39,862 nt of DNA from Symbiobacterium thermophilum (GTDB taxonomy: Bacteria; Bacillota; Sulfobacillia; DYFQ01), in contig DYFQ01000028.1 of assembly GCA_020725105.1 (NCBI GenBank), positions 1-39,862 on the forward strand. The letters run 5' to 3'. Made by a program: the position numbers and the translations under genes. The notes under the pieces are model-generated. The model saw only the letters and a program-made list of their open reading frames with translations. It ran no database searches and was not told the DNA's origin. Numbering within the stretch: the first letter of the stretch is position 1; the number at the start of each line of letters is the position of its first letter. Of the stretch, positions 1 through 6,024 are shown in pieces.

Positions 1-393
1 AATGGCTGGTTCCACACGGGCGACGTGGCCACCGTGGACGAGGACGGCTACTTCCGGATCGTCGACCGCAAGAAGGACATGATCATCGCCGGCGGGTACA
101 ACATCTACCCCCGCGAGGTCGAGGAAGTCCTGTACGAGCACCCCAAGGTCAAGGAAGCGGCCGTCATCGGGGTCACCGACCCCTACCGGGGCGAGACGGT
201 CAAGGCCTTCGTGGTGCTGAAGGCGGGCGAGCAGGCCACCGCCGACGAGATCATCGAGTTCTGCCGGGAACGCCTGGCCCGCTACAAGGTACCCAAGCTC
301 GTCGAGTTCCGCGACGACCTGCCCAAGAGCATGATCGGCAAGGTGCTCCGCCGGGTGCTGGCGGAGGAGGAACAGCGGCACGCCCAGGCCTGA
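1..393 (+). CDS. Acyl-CoA synthetase / AMP-dependent ligase, C-terminal part (5' truncated)
   Basis: The frame is open from base 1, so only the last 130 residues are in the window. They form the end of an ANL-superfamily adenylating enzyme, which activates a fatty or other carboxylic acid with ATP and then transfers it to CoA. The segment starts in the HTGD motif and continues through the hinge region ([21 protein letters not shown]), where the C-terminal domain rotates between the two half-reactions. It ends with the conserved [10 protein letters not shown] region, whose first lysine of GK is the usual adenylation-step lysine. This looks like the long-chain fatty acyl-CoA ligase (FadD-like) branch; the substrate cannot be read from this piece. 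A strong hairpin follows the stop directly, so this is the last gene of its transcript. Confidence 0.93.
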
Positions 394-397
394 GACT

Positions 398-435
398 CGA
401 GGGGCTCCGCGGCGTCCCGCCGGCGGAGCCCCTCG
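398..435 (+). terminator. Terminator-like perfect 13-bp hairpin after the ligase gene
   Basis: Bases 398-410 (CGAGGGGCTCCGC) and 423-435 are perfect reverse complements around a 12-base loop, starting five bases after the stop codon. There is no long T run after it, only a mixed pyrimidine stretch, which is common for terminators in GC-rich genomes. It also lies downstream of the minus-strand ORF at 467-748, so it may serve both directions. Confidence 0.7.
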
Positions 436-466
436 GTCTCCGCTCTGTTGCCTGCGCAGGGTAACG

Positions 467-748
467 CTATTGCCGGACCAGGTAGCGGACGATCTGGAAG
501 GGCATCCAGTCGACCGTCAGGCACGCCAGGGCCACCAGCGCCTCCTTGCGCCGGGCATAGCGCCGGGCGAGGCTGGTGCCGTCGGGGTAGCCGACGGAGA
601 CCTCCCAGCCGCCGGCCACGGGCCGGAAGCGGACGCGCTTGCCTGCCCCCGTCGCCAGGGCGATCTCGAGAAGCGCGCCTCCCGGCTCCACTTCTCGCCG
701 CCGGGGCCGGACCTGCCATCGCCGCAGGGGTACGCTCACCGCCGCCAC
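467..748 (-). CDS. Small protein of unknown function (93 aa)
   Basis: I do not recognise this family. The product is a basic, Arg-rich protein of 93 residues with a hydrophobic, aromatic end (LTVDWMPFQIVRYLVRQ) and a central stretch (VRFRPVAGGWEVSVGYPDGTSLARRYARR) that reads like a beta-rich fold rather than an out-of-frame shadow. It starts with GTG at 748; an in-frame GTG at 739, preceded by a GAGGTGG stretch, is an alternative start. It converges with the acyl-CoA ligase gene on the shared hairpin at 398-435. High GC makes spurious ORFs common here, so the gene is only moderately supported. Confidence 0.45.
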   Translation of the reverse strand: MAAVSVPLRRWQVRPRRREVEPGGALLEIALATGAGKRVRFRPVAGGWEVSVGYPDGTSLARRYARRKEALVALACLTVDWMPFQIVRYLVRQ

Positions 749-825
749 CTCGATCCCGGTGCGCTCCCACGTCCATCATGGGTTTCGCGCCGGCCGCTGA
801 CGAACTGGGGGCCATCAGCCCAGGT

Positions 826-899
826 TTGACATGAAATGGGGGTTCATAACTGCTGACGGATTTATAGAAAAATGTCTTGCTTCATAGTATATTATTTGC
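826..899 (+). promoter_or_regulatory. AT-rich promoter region of the IS607-type element
   Basis: This is an AT-rich stretch in an otherwise very GC-rich window, directly before tnpA. A TATATT hexamer at 888-893 lies 17 bases after TAGAAA at 865-870, a weak sigma-A-like pair, but the start site would then fall almost on the ATG at 900 and give a nearly leaderless message. A TTGACA at 826-831 has no good partner at normal spacing. The left end of the element probably lies in or near this stretch, but IS607 elements lack terminal inverted repeats, so I cannot fix it. Confidence 0.4.
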
Positions 900-1463
900 A
901 TGAAGCTCTCTGACTGGGCACGGGCGAACGGCATCTCGTACAAGACCGCCTGGCTGTGGTGGAAGCGGGGCAAGCTCCCTGTGCCCGCTTACCAAACACC
1001 GACCGGCACGATCCTGGTGGAGGTGCCTGATCGGCAGGAGACCGGGGCGACGCTGTACGGTAGGGTGTGCTCGGCGGACCAAAAGGCCGATCTCGACCGC
1101 CAGGTTGCACGGCTCGCGGCGTTTGCGGCGGAGAAAGGAATCAAGGTCGCCAAGGTGGTCGCCGAGGTGGGAAGCGGGTTGAACGGCCACCGCAAAGGCC
1201 TGATCTCGGTACTGCGCTCGCCCGAGTACGGGGCCATTATTGTCGAGCACCGGGACAGGCTTGCCCGGTTTGGGTCGGAGTACATCGAGGCAGCTCTGGC
1301 CGCCTCGGGGAGGCGGCTGATCGTGATGGAGCCGGACGAGGTGAAGGACGATCTCGTGCAGGACATGCTCGACGTGCTGACGAGTTTCTGCGCCCGGCTC
1401 TATGGTCGCCGCTCGGCGCGTCGGTGCGCCAAGAAGGCGGTGCGGGCGGCGGCTGAGCCGTGA
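900..1463 (+). CDS. tnpA: IS607-family serine transposase TnpA
   Basis: At 187 residues the length fits IS607 TnpA, a small serine recombinase that excises and integrates the element. The N-terminal part (residues about 1-45, KLSDWARANGISYKTAWLWW) is the MerR/Xre-like helix-turn-helix typical of this family. The catalytic domain begins at residue 52 (LYGRV) and continues with the ADQKADLDRQ helix and the EHRDRLARFG motif. The residue in the nucleophile position, normally the serine right after YxRV, reads as Cys57, with Ser58 next to it. The C-terminal YGRRSARR block is typical. The stop overlaps the tnpB start by four bases (GTGA), so the two genes are translationally coupled. Confidence 0.9.
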   Translation: MKLSDWARANGISYKTAWLWWKRGKLPVPAYQTPTGTILVEVPDRQETGATLYGRVCSADQKADLDRQVARLAAFAAEKGIKVAKVVAEVGSGLNGHRKGLISVLRSPEYGAIIVEHRDRLARFGSEYIEAALAASGRRLIVMEPDEVKDDLVQDMLDVLTSFCARLYGRRSARRCAKKAVRAAAEP

Positions 1464-2725
1464 TTACGTACCAAGCCTACCGTTTTGCCCTCGACCCCTC
1501 TCCCCGCGCCGAGCGGGCGCTGGCCTCCCACGTCGGGGCGCGGCGGTTCGCCTTCAACTGGGGCGTGGCTCTCGTCAAGGAACGCCTGGAGGCCCGCCGC
1601 CGGGGCGAGGATGTGGAGGTGCCATGGGCGCTCCCGGCGCTCAGGCGGGAATGGAACCAGGCCAAGGAAACCGTCGCCCCCTGGTGGCGTGAGAACTCCA
1701 AGGAGGCGTACTCGTCGGGACTCGCCGGCCTGGCCGACGCGCTCAAGAACTGGGTCGACAGCCGCAGGGGCCAGCGCCGGGGCCGCCGGGTGGGCTTTCC
1801 CCGTTTCAAGAAGAAAGGGCGGTGCCGGGAGTCGGTGTGCTTCACCACCGGCGCGATCCGGGTGGACGGCAAGAGCCACGTCGTCCTGCCCAGGATCGGC
1901 CGGGTGCGGACACACGAGCCGACGACGGCGCTGCTGGAGCGGATCGCGGCGGGGGAGGCCCGCATCCTGCGGGTCACGGTGTCGAGGGAGGGCGGGCGGT
2001 GGTTTGTGAGCTTCACCTGCGAGGTGGAGCGCGAGCAGAAGGTTCCCAGGCTCCCCGGCGCCGTGATCGGGGTGGACGCCGGGCTTCAGCACCTGGCCGT
2101 ATTCTCGACGGGGGAGAGGGTGCCGAACCCGCAGCCGCTCCGGAAGGCGCTCCGGAAGCTCGCCTGCCTGAACCGGGAGCTTTCGCGGCGGAAGCCGGGG
2201 AGCAGGAACCGGGAGGAGACCCGGCGGAAGCTTGCCCGGCTGCATTCCCGTGTGGCCCGCATCCGCCGGGACGCCATGCACAAGCTCACCTACCGGCTTG
2301 CCTGCGCCTACGGGACCGTCGTCGTCGAGACGCTGAACGCGGCGGGAATGCTGCGGAACCGGCGTCTTGCGCGGACGGTGGCCGACGCCGCGATGGCGGA
2401 GCTGCGGCGCCATCTCGGGTACAAGTGCGCCTGGTACGGGTCCCGGCTGGTCGAGGCGGAGCGGTTCCACCCGAGCAGCAAGACCTGCTCCCGATGCGGG
2501 GCGGTCAAGCCGGAGTTTCCTCTGTGGGAGCGGGTGTTCCGGTGTGATGCGTGTGGGTTCGTCCTGGACCGGGACGAGAACGCGGCGCGGAACCTCGCGG
2601 CCCTGGTAGCCGCCGTCGCCGGGAGTGGACCGGAGACGTTAAACGCCCGTGGACGGGATGTAAGACCCGCCGCAAGGCGGGCGGTCCCGGAGGAAGCGGG
2701 AAGCCGGCTGCGCGAAAGCGCGTAA
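1460..2725 (+). CDS. tnpB: TnpB, RNA-guided RuvC nuclease of the IS607-type element
   Basis: This 421-residue protein is a full-length TnpB, the ancestor-type relative of Cas12, which uses an omega RNA from the element's end to cut the empty donor site. The three RuvC blocks are present: GVDAG with Asp206, VVVETLN with Glu290, and DRDENAARNL at 370-379. The zinc ribbon sits between the last two, with Cys343/Cys346 (CSRC) and Cys362/Cys365 (CDAC). The N-terminal HTH_OrfB-like region (AFNWGVALVKE) and the GFPRFKKKG motif are also normal. The GTG start overlaps the tnpA stop. The last 50 residues, after the third RuvC block, are Arg/Ala-rich and overlap the structured tail described separately, a common arrangement when the RNA is encoded across the 3' end of tnpB. 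Confidence 0.93.
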   Translation: MITYQAYRFALDPSPRAERALASHVGARRFAFNWGVALVKERLEARRRGEDVEVPWALPALRREWNQAKETVAPWWRENSKEAYSSGLAGLADALKNWVDSRRGQRRGRRVGFPRFKKKGRCRESVCFTTGAIRVDGKSHVVLPRIGRVRTHEPTTALLERIAAGEARILRVTVSREGGRWFVSFTCEVEREQKVPRLPGAVIGVDAGLQHLAVFSTGERVPNPQPLRKALRKLACLNRELSRRKPGSRNREETRRKLARLHSRVARIRRDAMHKLTYRLACAYGTVVVETLNAAGMLRNRRLARTVADAAMAELRRHLGYKCAWYGSRLVEAERFHPSSKTCSRCGAVKPEFPLWERVFRCDACGFVLDRDENAARNLAALVAAVAGSGPETLNARGRDVRPAARRAVPEEAGSRLRESA

Positions 2726-2790
2726 GACCGGCGCCTCCGCCCGGCGACGGGCGGATGCCGGGAACAGATTTCTATGCTCCCGGCAACGGT
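2660..2790 (+). ncRNA. Candidate omega RNA (reRNA) scaffold at the 3' end of tnpB
   Basis: Three compact stems with GNRA tetraloops follow each other here. They are CCCGCC-GCAA-GGCGGG at 2666-2681; GCGC-GAAA-GCGC at 2710-2721, enclosed by GCCGG (2703-2707) and CCGGC (2728-2732); and CCGCCCG-GCGA-CGGGCGG at 2737-2754. A fourth stem, TGCCGGGA/TCCCGGCA, spans 2756-2785 with a 14-base loop. The first two stems lie inside the tnpB coding sequence and the rest extend past its stop. A structured RNA straddling the tnpB 3' end is where the guide RNA of TnpB systems is encoded. The guide would be the bases just past the element's right end, near 2785, but the exact junction cannot be set from one copy. 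Confidence 0.6.
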
Positions 2791-2883
2791 CAATCGCCCT
2801 GGCGTATCGGTTTGGTCACGGTGCGCACCTGGGTGTCTACCAGTTGGAGAGCGACCAGTCGAACCGGTTCAAGCGCGGTCCGA

Positions 2884-3297
2884 CTACCGCCGGTTCTGCC
2901 CGTCTAAGAAGTCGCGGCGATAGCCTATCCTCTTGGCCCATTGGGCTAGACCAGATGCGGCCCATTGAAAGACATCGAAGTAAACCAACAAGGGGAACCC
3001 AAATACGAAGTACCGTCCGTACGCGTCCTGCGTGCTGACGGGCTCCGCCCACGGCGTCGCCGCCAAGGCGCCGTATAACAGACCAGCTAGCAGGCATTGG
3101 GTTTGCAGTGGCAGCGAAGACCGCGGCCCGACCCTGCGGCCTGGTTGCCGTAGCGACACCAGGCCGATGATTGCTGCCAGGGCCCATATTGCACCAGTCG
3201 GCTGCGGAAGAATCTGCCATTGATGCATGGCTACGACGGTGACGACAGCGAACAGCCACTTCACGGACGTCCCAACAATTCGCGGCCAAGTCTTCAC
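2884..3297 (-). CDS. Small integral membrane protein of unknown function (137 aa)
   Basis: I do not recognise a named family. Four hydrophobic stretches are visible, at about residues 10-28, 35-48, 66-83 and 92-114, followed by a basic C-terminus, so this is a polytopic membrane protein. It begins with GTG at 3297; an AGGAGGG lies 12 bases upstream, rather far. It follows the DCC-type gene by about 70 bases in the same direction, and the pair probably forms one transcript. Base composition is lower in GC than the flanking genes, which suggests the pair was acquired separately. A partner role with the neighbouring thiol protein is only inference. Confidence 0.6.
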   Translation of the reverse strand: MKTWPRIVGTSVKWLFAVVTVVAMHQWQILPQPTGAIWALAAIIGLVSLRQPGRRVGPRSSLPLQTQCLLAGLLYGALAATPWAEPVSTQDAYGRYFVFGFPLLVYFDVFQWAASGLAQWAKRIGYRRDFLDGQNRR

Positions 3298-3365
3298 GGC
3301 TACCCGCTCCCTCCTGCGGTCCGGGCGGCAGGGGCTCCGGACAGGAGGCGCAATAGTGCCGCCAA

Positions 3366-3932
3366 CTATTGCAGCAAAAATAGAGCCCCGCTTGAAGCTA
3401 TGAGTCGTACCGTCTCAGCCTCAACGCGATACAAACTAGAGCTGCTCCGGAAGCCGCGCACCGCGTGGCGGAGAGCATAATGGTTGAGCACGTAACCCGC
3501 GCCGCTCGTCGCCTGCCAGATGGCTGCCACGGCCAGAAGGGTGTTCCCCGTTTCCAACTCATGCTGTGCTGCTCCGACGGCGGAAGCCTGGGTCTGAAGC
3601 CCCAACTGGGTCAAGGCCCAGCCGAGTTCTCTCGTATCCTGAGCTTCCCACAACGCCCCTCGGGCTTCGCCCAAAGCGGCGCCGCTCAACTCCTGTGTAC
3701 CCATGATACGGACGGCTGTTCGCCAGTGGCCCCGCCGCTCCTCCAAGACGGCCGGCTCCCACCGTGGCGATGCCTTCGTCTTATGGAGGAGCGCCTGAAT
3801 CGCAGGGTCGCCGAGGCTCCTGGCCACGAGCCTCCCACCGGCCTCAGCTTCGAGCTCCGTTGCGACGCGAGCACAGAGCGCACAGCCGGAATCGAAGAGG
3901 AGGTACCGCCTATCGTCCGGTTCGCCGAACAC
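3366..3932 (-). CDS. DCC-type (DUF393-like) thiol-disulfide protein
   Basis: The N-terminus (residues 9-35) reads RYLLFDSGCALCARVATELE, which matches the start of the DCC/DUF393 family: a beta strand ending in Asp, then a CxxC pair (Cys17 and Cys20). These small proteins have a thioredoxin-like fold and a predicted redox role. The 188 residues are longer than the usual DCC domain of about 110-140; the C-terminal third (TLLAVAAIWQATSGAGYVLNHYALRH) is more hydrophobic. The GTG start at 3932 has a good AGGAAGGGTGA ribosome site a few bases upstream. Lower GC than the flanks, together with its downstream partner, hints at transfer. Confidence 0.6.
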   Translation of the reverse strand: MFGEPDDRRYLLFDSGCALCARVATELEAEAGGRLVARSLGDPAIQALLHKTKASPRWEPAVLEERRGHWRTAVRIMGTQELSGAALGEARGALWEAQDTRELGWALTQLGLQTQASAVGAAQHELETGNTLLAVAAIWQATSGAGYVLNHYALRHAVRGFRSSSSLYRVEAETVRLIASSGALFLLQ

Positions 3933-4103
3933 GCTTCACCCTTCCTATCCGTTCAACCCCACTGTAGCCGACGCCCGGTGTGGCAGACTTCTACTCTCTG
4001 GGACATATTGCCTGCCGCCATGGACCGCTTGAGATCGCCAGTATTCGTAGCCCGTAAAGGTGACCCGTCCCCGGTTGTTAAGGGGTTGGGCGCGGTGACT
4101 GTC

Positions 4104-4124
4104 TAACGCCGGTTCGCGGCGTTG
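4104..4124. other. Short hairpin in the gap before the DUF5665-like gene
   Basis: TAACGCC and GGCGTTG around a 7-base loop can pair over 6-7 bases. It sits in the roughly 290-base gap between two divergently arranged genes, in which I see no other convincing element and no coding sequence. Confidence 0.3.
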
Positions 4125-4222
4125 GACCGAGAGGCCGCCGGGCACACTTTGAGCGGCGGCGGAATAGGCAGCAGGCGCGGCCGCGCGCCGCGCCGGCAAG
4201 TCTCGGGGAGAGGAGCCCGGCC

Positions 4223-4546
4223 GTGGAGCACCGGGACCCGGGCGCGCTGGAGTTCCTGATGCGGCGGCTGGACCGGCGCATCGAGGGGCTGGCCTACGCC
4301 ATGGAAAAGATGAAGCTGGCCGAGTACGTTGACCTCCTGGACCACCCCCGGCGGCTCTTGTGGATCAACTTCATCTCCGGCGTGGCCCGGGGCTTCGGCA
4401 TCGCCGTGGGGTTTTCCGTCCTCACCGCGCTAGCGGTCATGCTCGTCAGGGAACTGAATCTGATCAACCTGCCGCTTATCGGGCGGTTTGTCGCTGAAAT
4501 CGTGCGGTTTGTCCAGTCGGACCTGAGGGGCACCCCGGGGCCGTAG
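4223..4546 (+). CDS. DUF5665-like small membrane protein
   Basis: This 107-residue protein has a charged, helical N-terminal half (RRLDRRIEGLAYAMEKMKLAEYVDLLDHPRRL) followed by membrane-prone segments at about residues 46-76 and 80-97. The LAEYVxLLxxPRRLLWxNFxxGxARGxGxxxG pattern is that of DUF5665 proteins of Firmicutes; their function is unknown. The GTG start has a GGGGAGAGGAG ribosome site about 10 bases upstream. It lies upstream of, and in the same direction as, the YteA-like gene, but that gene has its own promoter. Confidence 0.75.
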   Translation: MEHRDPGALEFLMRRLDRRIEGLAYAMEKMKLAEYVDLLDHPRRLLWINFISGVARGFGIAVGFSVLTALAVMLVRELNLINLPLIGRFVAEIVRFVQSDLRGTPGP

Positions 4547-4673
4547 CGGCCGGCCCGCCGCCTGCCCCGCGGCGGGTTCACCGGCTGCCGCGCCGCCGCT
4601 CGCCGTCGCGCCGACGGCCGCGTCCCTCTGGTTTCCAGCCCGGGCAGCGACGCGGGCGCCGGCACCGGGGGAA

Positions 4674-4682
4674 TGCTATAAT
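4674..4682 (+). promoter_or_regulatory. Extended -10 promoter for the YteA-like gene
   Basis: TGCTATAAT at 4674-4682 is a perfect TGnTATAAT extended -10 element. No matching -35 box is seen, as allowed for this class. Transcription would start near 4689, about 20 bases before the GTG at 4710, leaving room for the GGAGGGG ribosome site. Confidence 0.65.
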
Positions 4683-4709
4683 TTCAGCACGGAGCCTGGA
4701 GGGGACCCC

Positions 4710-5474
4710 GTGGCCGAACAGTTCTCCCCCGACCATCTGGAACGTCTCCGCGGCCGGTTGCGCGCGGAGGAGGAAAGCATCAGCCGCAGGCTCGACCGGA
4801 TGGTGCGGCAAGGCGCCGGCGAGAGCCTGTCCGGTTCGGTCGGGGAACTCTCCCGTTACGACAACCACCCCGGCGACCTGGGCACCGAGACCTACGAGCG
4901 GGAAAAGGACCTCGGCAGCCGCTGGCGACTGGAAGAGCAGCTCGAGCAGGTGCGGGCGGCACTCGGCCGGATGGACCAGGGCACCTACGGCGTCTGCGAG
5001 AGCTGCGGTCAATGGGTCGAGGCCGACCGCCTCGAAGCGCTGCCCCAGGCCCGGCGCTGCGCGCGGTGCGAGGCCCGGCGGTCGGGCCGGCCACAGGAGA
5101 GCTTCAGACCGGCAGAGGAGGAGCGGCTCGAGCCCGCCTTCGCGCGGGGCTGGGACGAGCCGGACAGCATCGCCTACGACGCCGAGGACGCGTGGCAAGA
5201 CGTCGCCCGTTACGGCAGTTCCGATACGCCGGCGGACGTGCCCGGCGCCCGCGACTACGGGGACGCCTACGCGGGTGGCCACGAGGAGCGCGGAACCGTC
5301 CAGTCGGTGGAAGCGCTCGTCACCAACTGGGGCGACCCCATGGGCGGGCGGGACGAGGTGGAGGCCCGGGCCACCGGCTGGGAAGCCGTCGGCAAAGGGG
5401 AACAGGAGTCCGCGCAAGTGCAGGCTCAGAACCGCCGGACCCGCCGGCGGAGGGGCCGCCGGCCCGAAGCGTGA
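4710..5474 (+). CDS. TraR/DksA-type C4 zinc-finger protein, YteA-like
   Basis: The first 135 residues match the YteA branch of DksA/TraR proteins found in Firmicutes: a long N-terminal coiled coil (residues about 5-35), the family signature YDNHPGDLGTETYEREKD (about 50-67), a second helix (LEEQLEQVRAALGRMDQGTYG) and a C4 zinc finger of CESC and CARC. The remaining 120 residues are acidic and low in complexity, ending in a basic RRTRRRRGRR tail. Relatives are annotated as sporulation proteins or regulators, with no firm mechanism; binding to RNA polymerase is inferred from DksA. The GTG start has GGAGGGG upstream and an extended -10 promoter about 30 bases before it. Confidence 0.82.
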   Translation: MAEQFSPDHLERLRGRLRAEEESISRRLDRMVRQGAGESLSGSVGELSRYDNHPGDLGTETYEREKDLGSRWRLEEQLEQVRAALGRMDQGTYGVCESCGQWVEADRLEALPQARRCARCEARRSGRPQESFRPAEEERLEPAFARGWDEPDSIAYDAEDAWQDVARYGSSDTPADVPGARDYGDAYAGGHEERGTVQSVEALVTNWGDPMGGRDEVEARATGWEAVGKGEQESAQVQAQNRRTRRRRGRRPEA

Positions 5475-5489
5475 GTTCCGCCGCGTTTC

Positions 5490-5518
5490 TTGATGGGGCA
5501 GGGGGGCTGTGCTACAAT
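5490..5518 (+). promoter_or_regulatory. Sigma-A-type promoter for lspA-rluD
   Basis: TTGATG at 5490-5495 and TACAAT at 5513-5518 are separated by exactly 17 bases. Transcription should begin near 5525, which rules out the upstream GTG at 5509 as the lspA start and supports the TTG at 5572. Confidence 0.7.
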
Positions 5519-5571
5519 GGCCGCGCGGCCGGGCCGACGTCCGGCCCCACCACCGACCGGAGTTGAGGCGC

Positions 5572-6024
5572 TTGGGCATCGTCCTGGTGGCGGCGATCGT
5601 GCTCGTGCTGGACCGGGCCAGCAAGCTGCTGGTCCAGGCACTGATGGTCCCCTACCAGTCCGTCGCGGTGATCCCGGACCGATTCCACCTGACCCTCGTC
5701 TACAATCCCGGCGCCGCCTTCGGGCTCCTGCCGAACCGGACCACCTTCTTCGTGGTGGTCACGGTGATGGTCGTGGCCGCCATCGCGCTGTACGCCTGGA
5801 AGGTGGGCGTCACCCAGCCGGCCATCCGGCTGGCACTGGGCCTGCAGCTCGGCGGCGCCCTGGGCAACCTGTTTGACCGGCTCTGGAGCGGCGCCGTCAT
5901 CGACTTTCTCGACTTCCGTATCTGGCCCGTCTTCAACCTGGCCGACACCGCCATCGTCTCCGGGGTGGCCCTGTTCTCCCTGGGGGTCATCCGGGGGATG
6001 GTGAGGGAAGGGAAAACCACGTGA
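5572..6024 (+). CDS. lspA: Lipoprotein signal peptidase (signal peptidase II)
   Basis: LspA is the membrane aspartic protease that cuts the signal peptide from prolipoproteins after lipid attachment. From the TTG at 5572 the protein has 150 residues, the usual length. Four membrane helices are visible. The conserved blocks are YNPGAAFG (residues 44-51), GGALGNLFDRLWSGAVIDFLDF with catalytic Asp111, and FNLADTAI with catalytic Asp125. The frame is open further upstream to a GTG at 5509, but that codon lies inside the promoter; the TTG has GGAG nine bases upstream. The stop overlaps the next start (GTGA), so lspA and the pseudouridine synthase are coupled, a very common gene pair. The LivK-like lipoprotein in this window would be one of its substrates. 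Confidence 0.95.
   Translation: MGIVLVAAIVLVLDRASKLLVQALMVPYQSVAVIPDRFHLTLVYNPGAAFGLLPNRTTFFVVVTVMVVAAIALYAWKVGVTQPAIRLALGLQLGGALGNLFDRLWSGAVIDFLDFRIWPVFNLADTAIVSGVALFSLGVIRGMVREGKTT

What the first reader, a model, noticed from the sequence alone, without database searches (positions are those of the whole stretch)
2660..2790. Three tandem GNRA-capped hairpins at the tnpB tail, a candidate omega RNA
Stems with GCAA, GAAA and GCGA loops follow within 90 bases, the middle one enclosed by a second stem, then a 7-8 bp stem to 2785. Three GNRA tetraloops in a row are unlikely by chance and two stems lie inside the coding sequence. This would be the guide scaffold of an intact TnpB, with the guide taken from the flank near 2786-2805.
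Basis: partly seen in the sequence, partly recalled or inferred. Interest (0 to 1): 0.62.

Follow-up and report, generated by a model that had tools for sequence, protein, structure and literature searches.

The report
Guide-RNA scaffold of an IS607 transposon
The hairpins at the end of this jumping gene's tnpB are a conserved RNA scaffold, shared with many relatives, that very probably lets the TnpB nuclease use the DNA next to the element as its guide; this is a new example of a known kind of system.

Summary
The hairpins are real. The element is a complete IS607: serine recombinase tnpA 900-1463 and tnpB 1460-2725. Window 2693-2759 matches Rfam RF03015 "Transposase-2 RNA" at 67.6 bits, cut-off 42.7. 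A model of the whole 149-nt region finds the RNA directly after tnpB in 45 of 54 relatives. The helices covary strongly, including the two past the stop codon. Ungapped empty sites of two sister elements fix the boundary rule: left flank ..GGG^, right end ..AACGG^.

Corrections: GNRA loops are not the signature; only the third is usually GNRA (49 of 61 rows; the others 5 and 13). Stem 1 is closed by an outer helix, 2654-2659/2684-2689, that covaries; the competing minimum-energy hairpin does not. The pseudoknot expected at the 3' end was inconclusive.

Verdict: an IS607 TnpB right-end guide RNA, a new member of a known kind. The modest new point is that an Rfam family of unstated function is the core of this scaffold. 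Activity was not tested.

The parts
841..842 (.). Left junction core GG. The left flank AAATGGGGG supplies the presumed TAM (GGG); the element begins at 843 with TTCATAACTGCTG
   Evidence: LE rule GG^NNNNNAAC from relatives; 23 of 23 accepted junctions read GGG before the cut. The window's own empty site was not found
843..2789 (+). IS607-type insertion element, 1947 bp
   Evidence: Ends assigned by rule from copies in other genomes and two sister empty sites
900..1463 (+). tnpA, IS607-family serine recombinase
   Evidence: NCBIfam NF033518, 194.2 bits, cut-off 110; Pfam Resolvase
1460..2725 (+). tnpB, RNA-guided nuclease of the IS607 type, 421 aa; DAG, ETLN and DRDENAA motifs (D206, E290, D372) and a CxxC...CxxC zinc ribbon present
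   Evidence: NCBIfam NF038280, 531.8 bits, cut-off 350; aligned with ISDra2 TnpB chain 8bf8, E 6.5e-55; motif positions. Their role as catalytic triad is recalled
2641..2789 (+). reRNA (omega RNA) scaffold as modelled, R1; the true 5' end is not known
   Evidence: R1 found beside tnpB in 45 of 54 relatives
2693..2759 (+). Rfam RF03015 Transposase-2 RNA core
   Evidence: 67.6 bits, gathering 42.7, E 1.8e-12, full-length match
2654..2689 (+). P1: outer helix 2654-2659/2684-2689, inner helix 2666-2671/2676-2681, loop GCAA
   Evidence: Outer helix: 5 of 6 pairs with changes on both sides in A1
2703..2732 (+). P2: outer helix 2703-2707/2728-2732, inner 2710-2713/2718-2721, loop GAAA; internal loop GUAAGA holds the tnpB stop codon UAA (2723-2725)
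2736..2755 (+). P3: 8 bp, loop GCGA (the one loop usually GNRA in relatives)
   Evidence: 7 of 8 pairs with changes on both sides; GNRA in 49 of 61 rows
2756..2785 (+). P4, last stem before the end
   Evidence: 4 of 7 outer pairs with changes on both sides, 97.5% of cells paired
2785..2789 (+). AACGG right terminus with the GG crossover core
   Evidence: C, G and G each in 60 of 62 aligned matches; the right flanks diverge after it
2790..2809 (+). Predicted guide TCAATCGCCCTGGCGTATCG (flanking host DNA)
   Evidence: Inferred from the end rule and from published ISXfa1, whose right-flanking nucleotide belongs to the scaffold (PMC10711439); 20 nt length from PMC11061315 (abstract)

Best explanation
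Window 2641-2789 encodes the scaffold of a right-end guide RNA (reRNA or omega RNA) of an IS607-family TnpB. It overlaps the 3' end of tnpB and ends exactly at the element's GG crossover core. A transcript running through tnpB into the flank would be trimmed to about 130-150 nt of scaffold plus about 20 nt of flanking DNA sequence (2790 on). TnpB with this RNA would cut an element-free copy of the site, next to the GGG motif on its left, and so favour keeping the element. Shown here: the protein families, the conserved covarying RNA beside tnpB, and the end rule with GGG at the left junctions. Inferred: transcription, trimming, the guide start and cutting.
For: IS607 TnpA and TnpB each above their curated NCBIfam cut-off. 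Rfam RF03015 full-length match at 67.6 bits. On a sequence-only alignment of 17 relatives, 91.6% of cells pair, 28 of 44 pairs have changes on both sides, and the covariation score is 0.382 against 0.159 shuffled (0 of 500 shuffles) and at most 0.090 for slid versions. P3 and P4 lie past the stop codon, so coding cannot explain them. R1 is found adjacent and on the same strand in 45 of 54 TnpB loci, and nowhere else in those loci. Of 50 fetched R1 loci in the class, 46 have TnpB sequence beside the RNA. Empty sites of two sister elements, ungapped over 360 bases: 335/360 for one, 337/360 and 330/360 for the other. 23 of 23 accepted left junctions end GGG, the TAM reported for ISXfa1.
Against: No transcript data. 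The window's own empty site was not found in 154 genomes of the class, so its ends rest on relatives. The 3' pseudoknot reported for IS607 reRNAs was inconclusive here: for CCGU 2647-2650 with ACGG 2786-2789, standard pairs in 29, 54, 50 and 41 of 62 rows and no covariation. 9 of 54 loci lack the RNA; three end inside tnpB and four hold short TnpB matches, but two (L020, L053) are real misses. IS607 TnpB loci of Thermus and Rhodothermus match R1 only weakly (at most 16.7 and 13.1 bits), and a Nodularia phage element not at all. The junction pattern required GG, so only the third G is informative, and one relative (L004) seems to lack it.
Confidence: 0.93

Rival explanations
1. The structure is mainly a DNA or RNA feature of the transposon end (a TnpA binding site or transposition cis-element), not a guide RNA.
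For: The terminal AACGG with the GG core is fixed by the recombinase. Some copies keep the RNA end while TnpB is lost or truncated (L130, L144, L138, L139).
Against: P1 and P2 lie up to 135 bp inside the end, within coding sequence, and covary as RNA helices, with unpaired positions conserved too. The left end shows only a short AAC-containing motif in the alignments made. The RNA sits beside an intact TnpB, whose known relatives bind such RNAs.
Confidence: 0.04
2. The hairpins act as a transcription terminator or mRNA stabiliser at the tnpB 3' end.
For: Several strong GC-rich stems lie at the end of a gene.
Against: No run of T follows; the terminator scan found none on the + strand of 380-3000. 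Conservation stops exactly at the transposon end. Single-stranded GAAGCG, GGGAA and GUAAGA stretches are conserved, which a terminator does not need.
Confidence: 0.02
3. Chance hairpins in GC-rich coding sequence.
For: The region is 70% G+C and the three GNRA loops do not hold in relatives.
Against: Compensatory changes, the Rfam match and adjacency to tnpB in relatives.
Confidence: 0.01

Closest known systems
Rfam RF03015 Transposase-2 RNA
   Same: Full-length match over P2 and P3 at 67.6 bits
   Different: Rfam models 69 positions; here the conserved RNA has 149, adding P1, P4 and the AACGG end. No function is given in the Rfam output, and none was found in print
IS607 TnpB with reRNA, ISXfa1 (PMC10711439)
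   Same: IS607 element, GG crossover, GGG motif at the left junction, about 150 nt RNA running past the right end
   Different: Not compared in sequence; the pseudoknot shown there by mutation was inconclusive here
IS607 TnpB with RAGATH-18 reRNA, ISFba1 (PMC11061315)
   Same: IS607 TnpB, structured RNA beside the gene, G-rich TAM
   Different: RAGATH-18 is another Rfam family and was not hit in window 1-6000 up to E 10; that RNA starts 13 nt after the gene, while here it overlaps the gene's end
ISDra2 TnpB (PDB 8bf8, IS200/IS605)
   Same: Closest natural TnpB of known structure by sequence, E 6.5e-55; that 8bf8 is ISDra2 is recalled and fits PMC10711439's 8EXA
   Different: ISDra2 belongs to the IS200/IS605 family; the transposase here is a serine recombinase

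Membership tests
IS607 insertion sequence | Serine recombinase TnpA of the IS607 type | tested here: met
   NF033518 194.2 bits over cut-off 110
IS607 insertion sequence | GG core at both junctions, no target duplication beyond it | tested here: met
   Met for sister elements by ungapped empty sites; for the window itself by rule only
IS607 TnpB nuclease | TnpB of the IS607 group with intact RuvC motifs and zinc ribbon | tested here: met
   NF038280 531.8 bits over 350; motifs
TnpB reRNA / omega RNA | Conserved covarying structured RNA at the tnpB 3' end that stops at the right end | tested here: met
TnpB reRNA / omega RNA | Pseudoknot between the 3' end of the scaffold and an upstream loop | tested here: inconclusive
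   29-54 of 62 rows pair, no compensatory change
TnpB reRNA / omega RNA | RNA made, bound by TnpB, guides cutting | not testable with these tools
   Needs RNA sequencing and a cutting assay
Rfam RF03015 Transposase-2 | Score above the gathering cut-off | tested here: met
   67.6 against 42.7 bits
Rfam RAGATH-18 | Match to the RAGATH-18 model | tested here: not met
   No match up to E 10 in window 1-6000

The most novel reading that the evidence does not exclude
Transposase-2 RNAs are a separate scaffold class of IS607 reRNA, spread over Thermaerobacter relatives, Bifidobacterium, Mycobacterium, Streptomyces and related lineages, that uses a GGG motif and overlaps the coding end of tnpB; copies that keep the RNA but have lost tnpB could be served in trans by intact copies in the same genome.
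Probability: 0.4. Interest if true: 0.5.

Novelty: new member of a known kind. Interest (0 to 1): 0.36.

Why it matters
It gives an Rfam family named only for its neighbours a concrete role as the core of a TnpB guide scaffold, with predicted ends, guide start and target motif. It also gives a family-wide model for annotating compact guide-directed nucleases in GC-rich bacteria.

Tried and rejected
The minimum-energy hairpin UCCCG/CGGGA (2685-2689/2697-2701) was tested as an alternative to the P1 outer helix. It has no compensatory change and 82.9% of cells paired, against 5 of 6 pairs with changes on both sides and 96.9% for the outer helix, so it was rejected. GNRA loops as a signature were rejected except for P3. 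The pseudoknot CCGU x ACGG was left open. The window's own empty site was sought in 154 class genomes and not found. The second place in the own genome (G000:C6) is a decayed tnpB tail without the RNA.

Rows dropped. Weak R1 matches were not counted as members; one search lists 67 matches of 60 bits or more by my count, and 50 loci were taken further (L069-L078 and L117-L156). Of the 30 loci that itself returned (L087-L116), 21 show TnpB sequence and 9 do not (L103-L108, L110-L112), most of these weak matches or short contigs. Rows left out of model R1 include partial or deleted copies (L015, L043, L070, L078, L086) and the more diverged loci. In the junction count, 24 of 51 elements matched the left-end pattern; L139 was dropped as spurious and the later of two matches was used for L137, leaving 23.

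Full report
What is there. The window carries a two-gene IS607 element. tnpA (900-1463) matches NCBIfam IS607 transposase at 194.2 bits, and tnpB (1460-2725) matches IS607 TnpB at 531.8 bits, both above their curated cut-offs. The TnpB aligns over nearly its whole length with the TnpB of PDB 8bf8, and the DAG, ETLN and DRDENAA motifs and the CxxC...CxxC ribbon are present. It is therefore likely to be intact; that these motifs are catalytic is recalled.

The hairpins. Rfam gives a full-length match to RF03015 Transposase-2 RNA at 2693-2759, 67.6 bits against a cut-off of 42.7. Searches of the held papers for "transposase-2" with RNA motif and Rfam, "Transposase-2 RNA" and RF03015 found nothing; the paper I thought most likely to describe it is not held, so this says little about print as a whole. 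The family's name suggests that its authors saw transposase neighbours.

Conservation. A TnpB scan of the genome collection returned 54 loci. I aligned 17 RNA regions by sequence alone and counted pairs in a structure drawn from the window. 91.6% of cells pair, 28 of 44 pairs show changes on both sides, and the covariation score is 0.382, against a shuffled mean of 0.159 with 0 of 500 shuffles reaching it, and 0.090 at most for slid versions (the 44 pairs include 4 of the possible pseudoknot). P3 and P4 lie after the stop codon, so protein coding cannot explain their changes. A covariance model of the region (R1) was run on 70 loci and gave 62 matches. In the alignment fitted to the model, 39 of 40 pairs have changes on both sides; that alignment leans towards the structure. 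In the 54 TnpB loci the RNA is adjacent, downstream and on the same strand in 45, and no match lies elsewhere in them. Five of the 45 were among the model's own sequences, and L040 is the same copy as L084, which was too. Of the 9 without it, L044, L048 and L054 end inside the gene, L049, L051, L056 and L057 hold short TnpB matches, and L020 and L053 are real misses.

Stem 1 is enclosed by 2654-2659/2684-2689; 5 of its 6 pairs have changes on both sides. The competing minimum-energy hairpin has none. Tetraloop counts over 61 distinct rows are GNRA in 5, 13 and 49 for loops 1, 2 and 3, so only the third is a shared feature. The tnpB stop codon (2723-2725) lies in the GUAAGA internal loop of P2 in the window.

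The ends. Copies in other genomes share sequence up to ..ACGG and then diverge, and C, G and G of that end are each kept in 60 of 62 matches. The left end follows GG^NNNNNAAC. For one element of G148 the joined flanks match an empty site in G022 without a gap at 335/360 identities; G146 and G147 hold more diverged sites, with gaps (271/345, 240/312). For one element of G146, empty sites in G022 and G148 match without a gap at 337/360 and 330/360. G146 contig 2 has the length and the tnpB position of a Thermaerobacter sp. FW80 plasmid, so this genus is probably Thermaerobacter. Among 23 accepted left junctions all three bases before the cut are G; the search pattern itself required the last two. 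L004 seems to read AGG there. ISXfa1 is reported to cut next to GGG and to count the right-flanking G as scaffold (PMC10711439: start of the abstract, passages, sections 25 and 28). By this rule the window's element is 843-2789 and its guide starts at 2790. Its own empty site was not found in 154 genomes of the class.

Breadth. Of 154 genomes of the class, 40 have an R1 match, weak ones included. I examined 50 fetched loci; 46 have TnpB sequence beside the RNA and four do not (L070, L074, L130, L144). L074 shows a tnpB tail at the DNA level (83% over 212 bases with L069). In named records, R1 scores 161.3 bits in the Thermaerobacter plasmid, 40.0 in Mycobacterium celatum pCLP and 42.6 in Thermobifida phage P1312, but only 16.7 in Thermus HB8 pVV8 and 13.1 in Rhodothermus, with no match in a Nodularia phage. 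Rfam confirms RF03015 in the first two. So the scaffold is not that of all IS607 TnpBs.

How it most likely works. From PMC11061315 (abstract, sections 5, 6 and 10, and passages of others) and PMC10711439, IS607 TnpBs bind an RNA from their right end and cut DNA matching its guide beside a G-rich motif. The same parts in the same order are present here. Shown: protein families, covarying RNA, adjacency, end rule. Inferred: transcription, trimming, binding, guide start, cutting, and the benefit of keeping the element. The 3' pseudoknot of published reRNAs could not be shown.

Novelty. This is a member of a known kind. The link from RF03015 to IS607 guide scaffolds may be unpublished as far as searches show (search listings only), but most subscription papers were not searchable.

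Noticed in passing
L079 about 2826-2900 (G000:C6 about 46825-46900): A decayed tnpB tail in the same genome, 84% identical over 61 bases, without a detectable RNA.
   Followed up: partly
L130, L144, L070 (G146, G148, G022): Guide-RNA ends without tnpB beside them; in L070 the RNA is cut at its 5' side next to unrelated sequence.
   Followed up: partly
L137, L138, L139, L122: Copies with truncated or internally broken tnpB matches but a nearly intact RNA and right end.
   Followed up: no
L075 1175-1298: A second, partial RNA end on the opposite strand, about 1.3 kb from the RNA of a complete element in G036.
   Followed up: no
G012 and G038 weak R1 matches: Repeated low-scoring matches of similar score and length, several near contig ends, perhaps ends of another multi-copy element.
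   Followed up: no
window 398-434: Long GC-rich inverted repeat just after a reading frame that looks, by eye, like the end of an acyl-CoA ligase; no T run.
   Followed up: no
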